Positions 177 through 6,030 of a stretch of 6,058 nt of DNA are shown piece after piece; position 1 is the first letter of the stretch, and each line of letters opens with the position of its first letter. The notes beneath the pieces were generated by a model that was given only the letters and a program-made list of their open reading frames with translations, was not told the DNA's origin and ran no database searches. The translations under genes were made by a program, and so were the position numbers. This DNA is from Kiritimatiellia bacterium (lineage in GTDB: Bacteria; Verrucomicrobiota; Kiritimatiellia; RFP12; UBA1067). The DNA is taken from assembly GCA_017547265.1 (NCBI GenBank), contig JAFYQC010000047.1:1-6058 (forward strand). Direction: 5' to 3'.

Positions 177-189
177 TACTCCATTCCTT

Positions 190-230
190 TCTTAATCCTG
201 TTAATATTGTCAATCCTGTCTAAAAACTCC
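190..230 (-). repeat. Intergenic repeat R1 (A half only)
   Basis: On the plus strand this 41-bp copy reads TCTTAATCCTG, TTAATATTG, TCAATCCTG, TCTAAAAACTCC. It is one A shorter than the A halves of R2 and R3 and differs at a few positions. It has a 9-nt internal period. It lies 14 nt before the start codon of the exported protein at 176. The B half found in R2 and R3 is missing here, so this is a partial copy. Confidence 0.8.
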
Positions 231-717: not shown

Positions 718-760
718 CCTTTACAGCGAATCAACAAAAGCGGGGAAGCGAGTGACGAGT
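718..760 (-). repeat. Repeat B-half homologue inside the 3' end of abiEii
   Basis: The last codons of abiEii plus the bases after its stop align without gaps to the B halves of R2 and R3. The best-conserved block is TTTGTTGATTCGCTG in this copy and R2, and CGATTCGCTGTAAAGG-like sequence is shared with R3. In this copy the element encodes ELVTRFPAFVDSL plus the stop. In R2 and R3 the same frame reads VVTRFLRFVDSL and VVTRFPVSVDSL. Whether the toxin gene gained a repeat or the repeat came from a toxin gene end cannot be settled from this window. Confidence 0.6.
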
Positions 761-1503
761 TCTGCGCGTTCGCGATGGAAAAGCAGATGCTCGACATCGC
801 GGCGCTTGAGCTCGAGATCGACAGACTTCGCCTTTGCCGTCAGTGCCGCCTTGAGCGACTTGAGGTCAGTGACTTCTGGATGCACGGCAGACAAGAACGA
901 ATAATCTGGTTCCGTGCGCTGCAAAAGAAAGATCGCATCGTAAAAATCACGCCCCTTACCGCGCGTCAAAAGCGCTGACAACTTCATGGCGCAGAGCGTG
1001 GCCTCGTTCGGCACGGTCACAGGAAAGAAAAAGCCGCATCGCCGAATGTCGGCCGAGACCCGCTTGTACTCCCGCCCCTGGTCTTGCGCCTCAACCTTCA
1101 TCATAAACCGCTCTTCCTTGAAGGCCGAAAGCCCCAGCTCGTGCAGAAGACCCGGGAAAAGGATACTCCGCCGCATCGCCGTTAGCCGATCTGACTCCTT
1201 CTCCTTCGACACGGCATTAAGCCCGTTGCGCCTAAGATGTGCGACGAGCGCATCGGTGAAACGCACGAATTCTTCCGGCTCAAGATCCTTGCAGTCAAAG
1301 TCGAGGTCTTCGGAGAATCTGTCAATGTCCTTGGTGAGGCGAAGATTCGTGCCGCCAATGAATGTCAGACGGGGCGCCCATTGGCTTCTCGCAATCCACT
1401 CAAGCGCAAGACACTCGACATATTCCTTTAGAATATGCTTCACAAACTGTCCGGCACGAAGTTCCTCTGGAAAGAACCCCTTTATCGATTCAAGCGCAAT
1501 CAT
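721..1503 (-). CDS. abiEii: AbiEii-family nucleotidyltransferase toxin (type IV toxin-antitoxin)
   Basis: The 260-residue protein has the full signature of the AbiEii/COG2253 nucleotidyltransferase family (DNA polymerase beta-like fold). The GGT of motif I is at residues 50-52 (FIGGTNLRL). The metal-binding SEDLDF is at 64-69 (acids E65, D66, D68). A third acidic strand, MMKVEA, is at 134-139. A conserved K174 precedes RGKGRDFYDAIFLL at 181-194. Family members transfer nucleotides to cellular targets, and the related MenT enzymes modify tRNA 3' ends. In phage-infected cells this can cause growth arrest or abortive infection. The substrate here is unknown. The ATG at 1503 overlaps the abiEi stop as ATGA, which implies translational coupling with the antitoxin. 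Length is normal and no key residue appears lost. The C-terminus (VTRFPAFVDSL) matches a repeated intergenic element found twice more in the window. Confidence 0.93.
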   Translation of the reverse strand: MIALESIKGFFPEELRAGQFVKHILKEYVECLALEWIARSQWAPRLTFIGGTNLRLTKDIDRFSEDLDFDCKDLEPEEFVRFTDALVAHLRRNGLNAVSKEKESDRLTAMRRSILFPGLLHELGLSAFKEERFMMKVEAQDQGREYKRVSADIRRCGFFFPVTVPNEATLCAMKLSALLTRGKGRDFYDAIFLLQRTEPDYSFLSAVHPEVTDLKSLKAALTAKAKSVDLELKRRDVEHLLFHRERAELVTRFPAFVDSL

Positions 1504-2117
1504 AGCGCATACACCTCCTTTACAAGTCGCATCCTCCGCGCGAGGGCGTGAGAGCCGAAGCGCGCCACCACTCCATCCAAGTCACCGCTCGCAACAATCT
1601 CCGCGAGGACATCAGGATCAAAGCGCAACGCCTCGATTTCGTCTGGCGTGTCATACTGCGCGTTTAGATAAAGGAAGTCGCAAAGCGCCTTCGCGGGCGT
1701 CGCGACATTGACCGGCAATCCGTCGCCCACCGATTCCACGCCATAGCCAAACATCAACTGCGGCTTGACGCTTCGATACGAGAACTCGCCGAAGTCGTTC
1801 TTGAACGAGGCCGTCTTGAGCGTGGTCACCGAAGTAAACTGCACAACCGATTCAGGAATCAGTCCTGCGCGCGCCATCACATGCTCGCAGGAAAGATAGC
1901 TCGGCGAATAAATCTTGCCTGCAAAGTATTCGCCAATCCCCGGCTTGTTGGCAACATCGGCAAACGCATACCACGAACGCCTAAGCCGCTTGATATATCC
2001 CTTGCCAAGCCAAGTTAAGTAATTGCCCCTGTCAAAATTGGGAAACGCCGCCAAAACCTGCTCGGTCGACACACAGGCATAATCGTGGAAGCGCTCTCTG
2101 AAAGTAATGTAGTTCAT
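1500..2117 (-). CDS. abiEi: AbiEi-family antitoxin / transcriptional autorepressor
   Basis: The 205-residue protein has an N-terminal winged-helix region (about residues 1-55) containing GYIKRLRRSWYAF, the basic beta-wing typical of AbiEi antitoxins. A C-terminal domain follows with SYLSCEHVMARAGLIPE, then TSVTTLKTASF and FSYRSVKPQLMFGY (about residues 73-125), all characteristic of the AbiEi antitoxin group. In studied type IV systems AbiEi does not bind the toxin stably. It represses the operon by binding inverted repeats in the promoter and counteracts AbiEii activity. The ATG at 2117 sits within the inverted-repeat promoter described separately, and no clear Shine-Dalgarno is seen in the short leader. 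The gene overlaps abiEii by 4 nt. The domain limits are approximate, but the family call is firm because of the partner gene and the motifs. Confidence 0.9.
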   Translation of the reverse strand: MNYITFRERFHDYACVSTEQVLAAFPNFDRGNYLTWLGKGYIKRLRRSWYAFADVANKPGIGEYFAGKIYSPSYLSCEHVMARAGLIPESVVQFTSVTTLKTASFKNDFGEFSYRSVKPQLMFGYGVESVGDGLPVNVATPAKALCDFLYLNAQYDTPDEIEALRFDPDVLAEIVASGDLDGVVARFGSHALARRMRLVKEVYAL

Positions 2118-2602: not shown

Positions 2603-2615
2603 GGGCTCGCCCCTT

Positions 2616-2704
2616 TCTTAATCCTGTTAATCTTGTAAATCCTGTCTAAAAAACTCCGCACATTTGCAGCGAATCAACAAATCTAAGGAATCGCGTCACC
2701 ACTT
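2616..2704 (-). repeat. 89-bp intergenic repeat R2
   Basis: This unit aligns with R3 over 89 bp without gaps, with about nine mismatches. Its A half (2616-2657; TTAATCCTG-TTAATCTTG-TAAATCCTG-TCTAAAAAACTCC on the plus strand) is identical to that of R3. Most mismatches are in the B half (2658-2704). It fills nearly the whole gap between the stop at 2724 and the GTG at 2602. On the minus strand the B half reads in frame as EVVTRFLRFVDSLQMCGVF before a stop, and the A half in another frame as SFLDRIYKINRIKK. Confidence 0.85.
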
Positions 2705-3210: not shown

Positions 3211-3693
3211 TCATACAGCAAGGCAACATCCAGCAGGGAAAATCAACCCAGCAAAGAGAAAGATCAACAGATATACGATTATCCATCCACAGCGGTTGTT
3301 ACGTACTGCCACTACAGAGCCATACACTCCAAGGCACAACAATGCCACACCTTCAAAGAAGCCTGCATCAAGTCCTGCACAACACAGCGTTAAGCATAGG
3401 ACAATAAGCAACAGCATCGCGATAGCAAAACCCCTCAAGGCGACATGGTCTGATTCCTTGTCGTAAGGACGCTTTCCATGCTTTAACCTCGCCTTAATAC
3501 CCGCAAAGACCGATATGGCAACAATCGCACATCCTGTTGCCACCAAAGCAATTTGCAACCAAGACACATAAGGGCTGAAGTATACAAAGTCATATATGGG
3601 GCGGCGGAAATACACAATCAAAAATTCAAGAACCGCAGCAACAGCAACCATGCCACCAATCGCGGCAAACATTATTCTATTCTTCGCGCTCAT
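3211..3693 (-). CDS. Five-helix integral membrane protein, unknown function
   Basis: The 160-residue protein is almost entirely hydrophobic, with predicted membrane segments at about residues 8-29, 44-66, 86-107, 110-130 and 136-157. A charged loop, KARLKHGKRPYDKESDH (about 67-83), should be cytoplasmic by the positive-inside rule. Cysteines cluster at 100, 104-105 and 156-157 in the last three helices. I do not recognise a family. The ATG at 3693 directly abuts the end of repeat R3, leaving only TTAAGAG before it as a weak ribosome site. The next gene starts 19 nt after the stop, so the pair probably forms a two-gene membrane unit. The lack of R1/R2-like sequence between these two genes contrasts with the junctions on either side. 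Confidence 0.7.
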   Translation of the reverse strand: MSAKNRIMFAAIGGMVAVAAVLEFLIVYFRRPIYDFVYFSPYVSWLQIALVATGCAIVAISVFAGIKARLKHGKRPYDKESDHVALRGFAIAMLLLIVLCLTLCCAGLDAGFFEGVALLCLGVYGSVVAVRNNRCGWIIVYLLIFLFAGLIFPAGCCLAV

Positions 3694-3694
3694 C

Positions 3695-3783
3695 TCTTAA
3701 TCCTGTTAATCTTGTAAATCCTGTCTAAAAAACTCCCCACCTTTACAGCGAATCTACAGAGACAGGGAATCGCGTCACCACTT
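3695..3783 (-). repeat. 89-bp intergenic repeat R3
   Basis: This full-length unit aligns without gaps to R2. Its A half (3695-3736) is identical to R2's and ends one base before the next gene's ATG. Its B half (3737-3783) runs over the stop codon and last two codons (KW) of the trifunctional gene. It spans the entire 81-bp gap between the two genes. In the second frame the B half reads QVVTRFPVSVDSL followed by a stop, an echo of the AbiEii C-terminus. Confidence 0.85.
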
Positions 3784-5973
3784 GTCGTAATGAATCTTCG
3801 CCGGATTCCACTTGTCCTTGGCTGGCGGATTCTCGGCGGGGTAGCCAACGGGGATGACATTAAGTGGCATGTAGCCATCGGGTATGGATAGAATCTCGCG
3901 GACGGCGGCAATGCGGTCTTCACCAGGGAATACGCCAGTCCAAACGGCCCCCAGCCCTTGGGCATGCGCCGCCAGAAGAAGATTCATAGTCGCCGCCGAG
4001 CAGTCATGAATCCAATATTCCTTGCCGCGGCCAGGCAGTCCGTTGTCAAGCGATCCGCAGACGACAATCGCAAGTTTCGCGCCATTGCCAACACGCGAAT
4101 ACGGAAGCCGTGCGGCGAGTGCCGACAGTTTCGCGGGGTCCTTGACGACAACGAATTCCCACGGACGCTTGTCCATCGCCGTCGGCGCGCACATCGCGGC
4201 ACGCAGCATCTTCTCTACCTTGTCATCCTCGACGGGCTTGGATGCGTCAAACTTGCGAATGGACTTTCGCGTCGAAATCGCCGTAAGGACATCTGGGCCT
4301 TTCCACTTGACGGCATCCACACCCTCTCCGACACCGGAACGCCCCACATTCTCCGGCTGTTTCATCCGCTCGGAGGCCTTGCGGATGAAGCGCGGTAGGT
4401 TTCCCCAGATGGAATGATAGCCGTAGCCGCCATTTCTCATCTCGTCAATCGCGTCGTCCGCCGTCCAGCCCTCACGCAGAATGCGATACATCGCGCACAT
4501 CGTTCCGGTTCGGTCGGCACCGTGCTGGCAATGCACCAAGACCGGCACAGCGTTCGTATCGTCTAAGACCGAGAGGAAATCAGTAATATACTTGTCCTTC
4601 ATGTTCCCCGTGAAAATCTCAATGCGATGCGCCTTAAGAGGAAGACCGCCGATCTCGTCAGAATCGGAATGGTTGTCGCGCAGGTTCACCACCGTCTTTA
4701 TGCCGAGCGCAACGAGATTTGTCATCCCCTCCGCCGTCGGCTGCGCGCTACGATAAAGCTTGTCTGAGACTTTATGCAAATTGGGAACGCCAGCGCACGT
4801 CATCGGCACCGCCCACTTCTCAGGTCTCGCCGTAACGTCCACGCGCGTCGCTGGTTCCTCTGCGGTAACGCTCTTTGCCTTCGGGAAAAGATAGCGGAAG
4901 TTGCGCCGCAGCGAAAGAAGCGTTTTCTCAGCCTTGCTACCGGGCTCGTGGCGAGGGACGCCCTTCCCTTCCAGCACATCCATAACATCTTTGCACGAAC
5001 TCCACGTGGTGAAGATGAGGCCGAGATACTGTCCGCGGTCGTGGGCGACGGCGTATGCCAGGAACTTCTGCGTGTTCTCGGAATAGCGCCAGGGGCAGAG
5101 ATATATTTTGCGCCCAGCATCGGCGAAGACATCCACGCTTGGATAGGCGGGGCAGTTCTCGTAGTGCCAGTCGCAGATGGCAATGTCCTTGTCGAGCATA
5201 TTGACTGCATCGCTTGTGCCATTGTCGCTCGCTTCCCATTCTCCGTAGCCGGTCGTTTTTGCATCGAGCAGACGGTCGCCCCAGATCATCGTGTCGACGC
5301 CGCGCGACTTGAGGTGCCTCGCAATTCCGTTGACCCAGTCCGCGAACAGCTTAGACGTTGGAGTGTCCTTGCAACGCGGACAGTTGCCGATTTCGAACAC
5401 CTCGTCGCAGCCAATATGCATGGCATCAGCGCCAAACGCCTCAACAAGTTCGTCCGCAAGGTCGGTGACGATTCGCATCGAGTCGGGGTGCTTGGGGCAG
5501 ATGCTTCGGCAGTAGTTGTTACGTACGTTCTTTTTCTCTGGCGATTCGTCGAGTTCGGGATACGCCTTCAGAAGCCCGTCGCTTATCGTGTTTCCGCTTT
5601 GATGGCCCAGCAGATTCATCTTTGGGATGAGCCGAATGCCGGCGTCGTCACAGGCGCGCTTTATGGCCTTTGCGTCATCAAGGGAGATTGCGTCCTTGGT
5701 CACACATCCAGGATGAGACGTGAACTGGTATTTGTATCGCACGAGCAGGACAACGGTATCGACGCCGGCCGGTTTTAGCGTGTCCTTCACAAATGTGCAG
5801 AACCGCCCCACGTCCTTTGGCGCCGGCACCGAAATGCAAATCGCCTTTGTCTTCCAACCGCCCGCGGGCTCCGGCGCCACGCCAGGCATGTCCTGATCTT
5901 CTGCGGCACCGAACGCCGAGACAAAGATCGTCACTCCCGCAACAACCAGTGCAAACATTTTTAGCTTTTTCAT
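3775..5973 (-). CDS. Exported trifunctional fusion: GH20-like glycosidase, TpbA-like phosphatase, FMN nitroreductase
   Basis: The 732-residue protein has a Sec signal peptide (1-22, cleavage after AFG) and three domains. (1) Residues about 40-345 form a GH20-like barrel: the catalytic pair is D190-E191 in MHIGCDEVF, CPRC is at 198-201, MIWGDRLLD at 229-237 and FTTWSS at 321-326. GH20 enzymes remove terminal N-acetylhexosamines. (2) Residues about 383-537 form a tyrosine/dual-specificity phosphatase of the exported TpbA type: KLYRSAQP at 405-412, GIKTVVNLRD at 424-433 and the CX5R loop HCQHGADRTG at 481-490 (C482, R488). (3) Residues about 556-732 form a full-length nitroreductase: RKSIRKFD at 569-576 for FMN phosphate, CAPTAMDKRPWEF at 595-607, LGAVWTG at 674-680 and a typical IHYDKW end. 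All catalytic signatures look intact and no stop or frame change interrupts them. The start is supported by AAAGGA upstream. Exporting an FMN enzyme by Sec is odd. The domain calls are firm, but joint function is unknown. Confidence 0.9.
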   Translation of the reverse strand: MKKLKMFALVVAGVTIFVSAFGAAEDQDMPGVAPEPAGGWKTKAICISVPAPKDVGRFCTFVKDTLKPAGVDTVVLLVRYKYQFTSHPGCVTKDAISLDDAKAIKRACDDAGIRLIPKMNLLGHQSGNTISDGLLKAYPELDESPEKKNVRNNYCRSICPKHPDSMRIVTDLADELVEAFGADAMHIGCDEVFEIGNCPRCKDTPTSKLFADWVNGIARHLKSRGVDTMIWGDRLLDAKTTGYGEWEASDNGTSDAVNMLDKDIAICDWHYENCPAYPSVDVFADAGRKIYLCPWRYSENTQKFLAYAVAHDRGQYLGLIFTTWSSCKDVMDVLEGKGVPRHEPGSKAEKTLLSLRRNFRYLFPKAKSVTAEEPATRVDVTARPEKWAVPMTCAGVPNLHKVSDKLYRSAQPTAEGMTNLVALGIKTVVNLRDNHSDSDEIGGLPLKAHRIEIFTGNMKDKYITDFLSVLDDTNAVPVLVHCQHGADRTGTMCAMYRILREGWTADDAIDEMRNGGYGYHSIWGNLPRFIRKASERMKQPENVGRSGVGEGVDAVKWKGPDVLTAISTRKSIRKFDASKPVEDDKVEKMLRAAMCAPTAMDKRPWEFVVVKDPAKLSALAARLPYSRVGNGAKLAIVVCGSLDNGLPGRGKEYWIHDCSAATMNLLLAAHAQGLGAVWTGVFPGEDRIAAVREILSIPDGYMPLNVIPVGYPAENPPAKDKWNPAKIHYDKW

Positions 5974-5988: not shown

Positions 5989-5992
5989 CGCG

Positions 5993-6030
5993 TTTTTTAG
6001 ACAGGATTTACAGGATTTACAAGATTAAGA
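5993..6030 (+). repeat. Intergenic repeat R4 (A half, opposite orientation)
   Basis: TTTTTTAGACAGGATT, then TACAGGATT, then TACAAGATTAAGA on the plus strand is the reverse orientation of the A halves of R1-R3, with one 9-nt unit differing. It lies upstream of the trifunctional gene. The window's last bases (AATCCTGTC, 6049-6057) are the reverse complement of GACAGGATT at 6000-6008, so a second, inverted copy may begin at the edge. No gene is visible between 5974 and the window end. Confidence 0.75.

What the first reader, a model, noticed from the sequence alone, without database searches (positions are those of the whole stretch)
3775..5973. Three unrelated enzymes fused in one exported polypeptide (GH20-like + TpbA-like phosphatase + nitroreductase)
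One uninterrupted frame carries a signal peptide, a GH20-like barrel with a D-E catalytic pair, a CX5R phosphatase loop and a complete nitroreductase. I know each family as a stand-alone protein and know of no described protein with all three. All three signature motifs look intact, so the fusion does not look like decay. A sugar hydrolase and a phosphatase could act in turn on phosphorylated or modified glycans, but a redox flavoenzyme in the same exported chain has no obvious role.
Basis: partly seen in the sequence, partly recalled or inferred. Interest (0 to 1): 0.85.

Follow-up and report, generated by a model that had tools for sequence, protein, structure and literature searches.

The report
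Recently fused three-enzyme exported gut protein
Three enzymes that related gut bacteria export as separate proteins have been joined by recent DNA rearrangements into one still intact-looking protein, and forms that look like the intermediate steps survive in related bacteria.

Summary
In detail: window 5973-3775 (-) is one 732-aa frame with a signal peptide (SP), GH20 barrel, TpbA-like phosphatase (PTP) and nitroreductase (NR), motifs intact. A second protein, P0002, has both junctions and differs at 11 of 732 residues. The fusion is young. Relatives 93-97% identical in DNA carry the parts separately: SP-PTP then an NR gene (L006); SP-GH20-PTP then a broken NR gene (L001). P0068 is SP-PTP-NR with the same junction; P0069 has a different PTP-NR junction, so that fusion happened at least twice. 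A 1041-bp in-frame GH20 segment thus lies between signal peptide and PTP, and a deletion joined PTP to NR. Export of the NR predates fusion: 90 of 92 NR relatives examined have a hydrophobic export or anchor N-terminus. Differences from relatives are mostly synonymous in all three domains. The same 137-aa PTP core (80-99% identical, no length change, 19 proteins) is joined to at least five other N-terminal and two other C-terminal partners, so it behaves like a fusion-prone hub in a Kiritimatiellia-like gut lineage. I read three tethered, independent periplasmic enzymes; joint function is unproven. A chimeric assembly through the repeated PTP core is unlikely but not excluded.

The parts
3775..5973 (-). 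Fused gene, 732 aa, SP-GH20-PTP-NR
5902..5973 (-). Signal peptide, about residues 1-24; shared with SP-PTP genes of L006 and L010 and with SP-GH20-PTP of L001
   Evidence: cleavage site not computed
4852..5892 (-). GH20 segment absent from SP-PTP relatives: residues 28-374, 1041 bp, in frame
   Evidence: L006 and L010 join 5892 directly to 4851
5401..5406 (-). GH20 catalytic pair D190-E191
4357..4851 (-). TpbA-like phosphatase (PTP), residues 375-539
4510..4533 (-). PTP loop HCQHGADR, C482-x5-R488
4338..4357 (-). PTP/NR deletion junction (after Q539) and a second in-frame 54-bp loss (R545/S546) relative to stand-alone NR genes
4300..4347 (-). Linker predicted disordered, residues 543-558
   Evidence: pLDDT under 50
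3778..4293 (-). Nitroreductase domain, residues 561-732
5992..6030 (-). Copy of the dispersed repeat, just upstream of the gene
3687..3736 (+). Copy of the dispersed repeat, just downstream of the gene

Best explanation
This is a recent, in-frame accretion of three enzymes that the lineage already exported separately. Shown by comparison: (1) SP-PTP and a lipoprotein NR stand as neighbouring genes in relatives; (2) some strains have a GH20 domain between the signal peptide and the PTP; (3) some have PTP joined to NR after loss of the spacer and of the NR signal peptide and lipobox; (4) the window has both. The order of steps is not resolved. Inferred: the chain is secreted through Sec and works as three independently folding enzymes on flexible linkers in the periplasm or outside: GH20 releasing an N-acetylhexosamine or lacto-N-biose-type unit from a glycan, PTP removing phosphate, NR reducing a small electrophile with FMN. 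Fusion changes the NR from a lipid-anchored to a soluble enzyme in fixed ratio to the others; I think it gives co-localisation rather than a new chemistry.
For: Blastn of window against relatives: L006 and L010 join window 5892 to 4851 directly; L006 and L001 hold separate NR genes about 0.4-0.5 kb past the PTP stop. L001 keeps the window's order GH20-PTP, NR, then the same downstream gene, so the locus order does not rest on the window's assembly alone. P0002 has the whole chain; P0068 (4 contigs, longest 41,839 bases) has the same PTP-NR junction; P0069 a different one. Differences are mostly synonymous: dN/dS GH20 0.06 (L001), PTP 0.05 (L001), 0.14 (L006), 0.08 (L010), NR 0.02-0.05 (five relatives). 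Export of the parts: 90 of 92 NR relatives and 94 of 100 PTP relatives under 240 aa have a hydrophobic N-terminus. Model of residues 371-732: pLDDT 88.7, both domains confident, linker 543-558 disordered.
Against: No reads, expression data or DNA of another triple-fusion allele, so selection on the fused branch itself was not measured; the dN/dS pairs compare fused with unfused genes. In L001 the NR gene is broken, so NR may be dispensable there. 0 of 19 loci from genome contigs carry the triple fusion. The whole-chain model was weak (pLDDT 66, PTP under 50). FMN and reductant supply outside the cytoplasm is unexplained.
Confidence: 0.75

Rival explanations
1. Assembly chimera: GH20-PTP and PTP-NR are each real, but the assembler joined them through the near-identical PTP core, which is longer than a short read.
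For: The PTP core is repeated in many contexts at 80-99% identity. Window and L001 differ less in GH20 (18 of 235 synonymous sites) than in PTP (25 of 116; Fisher p 4e-4), as a switch near the PTP start would give. Both triple chains known could share the same error.
Against: P0002 has the same chain with 8 PTP differences. L001, a separate assembly, independently places GH20-PTP, NR and the next gene in the window's order. The window's PTP differs from that of P0068 at 11 positions along its length, so it is not a simple splice with P0068. Real recombination gives the same mosaic.
Confidence: 0.13
2. Nearly neutral accident: the fusion is real but is a short-lived allele with the NR carried as a passenger, on its way to decay.
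For: Only two triple chains found; NR gene broken in L001; PTP genes elsewhere broken (L059) or reduced to remnants (L012).
Against: All motifs intact; NR differs from stand-alone relatives at dN 0.003-0.044 against dS 0.13-0.93; PTP-NR fused twice independently and held on 4 contigs as P0068.
Confidence: 0.3
3. A dedicated three-step enzyme for one substrate: a phosphorylated or nitro/quinone-conjugated amino-sugar glycan is cut, dephosphorylated and reduced by one chain.
For: Co-fusion and export of all three; neighbouring PTP and NR genes in L006; independent PTP-NR fusions.
Against: PTP and NR lie on different contigs or far apart in most of the family genomes that have both (adjacent in G001 and G002 only); the PTP is joined to many unrelated partners; no substrate known.
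Confidence: 0.1

Closest known systems
GH20 single-barrel proteins Niako3494 (8bal) and Treponema denticola lacto-N-biosidase (9fyl, 9fym)
   Same: Barrel and catalytic DE; sequence E 1.9e-65 and 9e-52, Foldseek E 5e-26 and 3e-22
   Different: Those chains are single-domain; substrate of the window's barrel not known
TpbA, periplasmic dual-specificity phosphatase of Pseudomonas aeruginosa (2m3v, 4r0s)
   Same: Exported, C-x5-R loop, fold (Foldseek E 4e-13, TM 0.82 by target)
   Different: TpbA is stand-alone; its general acid D105 falls on Met in the alignment, with a conserved Asp two residues on
Nitroreductases of Parabacteroides (3m5k) and Bacteroides (3kwk)
   Same: 48% identity in structure alignment, TM 0.91-0.92 by target
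   Different: The window's NR family has an export or anchor N-terminus; the PDB chains show none, but constructs may be trimmed
Peroxiredoxin-nitroreductase fusion enzyme (4eo3)
   Same: A nitroreductase domain joined to another enzyme
   Different: Other partner; export status not examined

Membership tests
GH20 (PF00728) | Profile match above curated cut-off | tested here: met
   39.4 bits against 22.3
GH20 (PF00728) | Catalytic Asp-Glu pair in the barrel | tested here: met
   D190-E191 align with 8bal and 9fym
GH20 (PF00728) | Hexosaminidase or lacto-N-biosidase activity | not testable with these tools
   needs assay
TpbA-like dual-specificity phosphatase | HC-x5-R loop | tested here: met
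   HCQHGADR at 481-488
TpbA-like dual-specificity phosphatase | General-acid Asp equivalent to TpbA D105 | tested here: inconclusive
   aligned residue is Met; Asp two residues later is a candidate
TpbA-like dual-specificity phosphatase | Export | tested here: met
   signal peptide by sequence; 94 of 100 relatives under 240 aa have a hydrophobic N-terminus
Nitroreductase (PF00881) | Profile and fold | tested here: met
   88.5 bits against 23.5; Foldseek E 7e-20 to 3m5k
Nitroreductase (PF00881) | FMN binding and homodimer | not testable with these tools
   motifs present; dimer not modelled

The most novel reading that the evidence does not exclude
The PTP core is a mobile protein domain: in this lineage a 137-residue exported phosphatase is being moved, essentially unchanged, between unrelated proteins on both its sides, and the triple enzyme is one product. 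P0026 (LRR-PTP) and P0092 (PTP-FGE) are 99% identical in the core with unrelated partners, and a phosphatase tail may serve as a regulatory or targeting tag for many exported proteins.
Probability: 0.35. Interest if true: 0.65.

Novelty: new variant of a known kind. Interest (0 to 1): 0.48.

Why it matters
Multi-domain enzymes are usually seen long after they formed. Here the separate genes, the two partial fusions and the full fusion look to be alive together at 93-97% DNA identity, so the selective value of each step can be tested with natural alleles. It also points to a family of exported nitroreductases, for which FMN loading and electron supply outside the cytoplasm are open questions, and to a phosphatase domain that changes partners unusually fast.

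Tried and rejected
Viral contigs: two scans (P0068, P0001), no relative confirmed. Own genome: none held. Repeats as the direct cause of the fusions: the dispersed repeat flanks the gene but is not at either junction, so I do not claim it. A transposon-like insert in P0007: I suspected one, but Pfam shows no family in its tail. First alignment for modelling (A2) had the NR-only rows misaligned and was dropped; the whole-chain model was weak in the PTP, so residues 371-732 were modelled again. Reading tblastn matches of L006 (371-596) and G079 (388-573) as fusions: rejected, since they run through stop codons. Papers: nine searches; I saw passages of PMC4409338 and only listings of the rest.

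Full report
What is there. Window 5973-3775 (-) is one uninterrupted 732-aa frame. It matches GH20, tyrosine or dual-specificity phosphatase and nitroreductase models above their cut-offs and solved structures of each kind. D190-E191, C482-x5-R488 and the nitroreductase motifs are present and align with solved relatives.

Is it a one-off? No. The protein search with the whole chain scored 7,994 candidates and listed 66; one, P0002, is a second 732-aa chain with both junctions, 11 differences in all (2 in GH20, 8 in PTP, 1 in NR). It is on one 3,995-base contig. P0003 to P0006 are GH20-PTP chains that stop after the PTP; P0006 is 88% identical, so that junction has had time to diverge. A search with residues 371-732 (4,502 proteins reached 1e-15, the best 120 listed) found P0068, SP-PTP-NR with the same junction (4 contigs, longest 41,839 bases), and P0069, whose PTP and NR meet at another place. 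So PTP and NR were fused at least twice.

How it arose. Blastn against relatives gives sharp boundaries. In L006 and L010 window position 5892 continues at 4851: no GH20. In L006 the NR is a separate gene about 0.4-0.5 kb past the PTP stop, with its own lipoprotein-type signal; L001 has GH20-PTP with its own stop, then a separate NR gene that lacks codons for residues 596-624 and changes frame. DNA identity over these parts is 93-97%. L001 also shares the gene that follows the NR in the window. The window therefore differs from L001 mainly by removal of the PTP stop, the spacer and the NR signal, plus a 54-bp in-frame loss in the NR linker. The order of the GH20 and NR steps is not resolved, since both partial fusions exist. 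At the GH20 ends short similar stretches (coding AEDQ and AEEP) stand on both sides, which would fit recombination at short homology; this is inference.

Not common. 0 of 19 loci from genome contigs, 0 of 114 family genomes and 0 of 161 order genomes (queried with P0068) show PTP and NR in one frame without a stop; in the phylum sample (387 genomes, two candidates scored in each) no match covers all three. These searches score a limited number of candidates per genome, so absence is not absolute. PTP and NR matches lie close together in G001 and G002 only; in G007 a PTP remnant lies about 3 kb from the NR.

Selection. Nei-Gojobori estimates: GH20 dS 0.08, dN/dS 0.06 against L001; PTP 0.05 (L001), 0.14 (L006), 0.08 (L010); NR 0.02-0.05 against five relatives. 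Each pair sets the fused gene against unfused ones, so they show constraint on the domains, not on the fusion. An unfused PTP pair, L001 against L006 (fused to GH20 only, and not fused), gave 0.20. GH20 has fewer synonymous differences from L001 than PTP has (18 of 235 against 25 of 116 sites, p 4e-4): a mosaic, from recombination or, less likely, from assembly.

Why an exported nitroreductase? It is ancestral. Among 92 NR relatives (those of the 120 listed that bear the motif KEYW[IL] and no PTP loop), 90 have a hydrophobic stretch near the N-terminus, 66 of them with a lipobox-like Cys; the two without are P0159 and P0163. The same test past residue 70 is positive in 1 of 92. Of 100 PTP proteins under 240 aa, 94 have a hydrophobic N-terminus. 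So three exported proteins became one; the NR lost its lipid anchor.

The PTP as a hub. In 19 proteins chosen to show different architectures, the PTP core is 137 residues in every one and 80-99% identical, mean 92%. N-terminal partners besides GH20: BspA-type LRR (P0026), DUF805 (P0028 to P0032, and G003 in a genome bin), a DUF218 fragment (P0091), an unassigned region (P0033) and a membrane region (P0193, G088). C-terminal partners besides NR: FGE-sulfatase (P0092) and an unassigned tail (P0089). P0026 and P0092 share 99% of the core. By length, 33 of 134 held proteins with the PTP loop are fused, but the 134 come from searches aimed at fusions and are not a fair sample. In the family genomes most PTP frames are about 180-290 aa and stand alone. 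Fusion of neighbours is seen again with DUF805: in L055 a DUF805 gene lies upstream of a separate SP-PTP gene with one frame between them, while in L056 the two are one chain. G003 holds both a stand-alone PTP and a DUF805-PTP.

Structure. The whole-chain model is good for GH20 and poor for PTP (pLDDT 66). Residues 371-732 with a deeper alignment give pLDDT 88.7 with both domains confident, pTM 0.56 and a disordered linker at 543-558, as expected for two domains without fixed packing. Nearest folds: 8bal and the Treponema denticola lacto-N-biosidase for GH20; 3m5k, 3kwk and TpbA for the rest.

Where it lives. The closest records are titled uncultured bacterium (RUG14632, RUG10640; RUG as rumen genomes is recalled), with family members titled Kiritimatiellae (L014, sheep rectum) and Lentisphaerae (L007). 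L010 (goat cecum) is titled Clostridia, which I take for mis-binning. P0193 and P0195 are named Kiritimatiellae in NCBI. I therefore write Kiritimatiellia-like.

Function. Most likely three independent enzymes on one exported chain. Shown: frame, domains, motifs, history. Inferred: export, FMN loading outside the cytoplasm, substrates and any benefit from tethering.

Literature. None of nine searches found a description: 'periplasmic nitroreductase' 0 papers; Kiritimatiell with domain shuffling 0; with nitroreductase 1 and with gene fusion 5, seen as listings only, none about this by title; 8BAL with GH20 0 and 9FYM 0. The library holds open-licence papers only.

Noticed in passing
window 186-230, 2608-2657, 3687-3736 (+), 5992-6030 (-): Dispersed intergenic repeat. 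A 17-base core (up to 2 mismatches) occurs 4 times in the window and in L001, L006, L009, L010, but in none of 7 other loci checked, and 0 in 20 shuffles. With 1 mismatch it is in 8 of 10 genomes, up to 28 copies (G001), reversed control 0.
   Followed up: partly
window 2608-2704 and 3687-3783: A 97-base direct repeat (88%) flanks two small genes; each copy ends with the last bases of a nitroreductase gene, a trace of duplication or of cassette gain.
   Followed up: partly
window 721-2117 (-): Type IV toxin-antitoxin-like pair: AbiEii PF08843 E 1.9e-18; the partner matches AbiEi NF047376 only weakly, E 0.0041, below its cut-off.
   Followed up: no
L001 10015-10657: Separate NR gene broken by loss of codons and a frame change.
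   Followed up: partly
P0163: NR whose N-terminal third looks like another nitroreductase and whose rest matches this family: recombinant or assembly chimera.
   Followed up: no
P0007: GH20-PTP chain whose PTP breaks off inside the catalytic loop into a tail with no Pfam match.
   Followed up: partly
L006 7431-7898; L010 1329-2285: Vsr endonuclease gene upstream of SP-PTP in L006; IS110-type transposase downstream of SP-PTP in L010.
   Followed up: no
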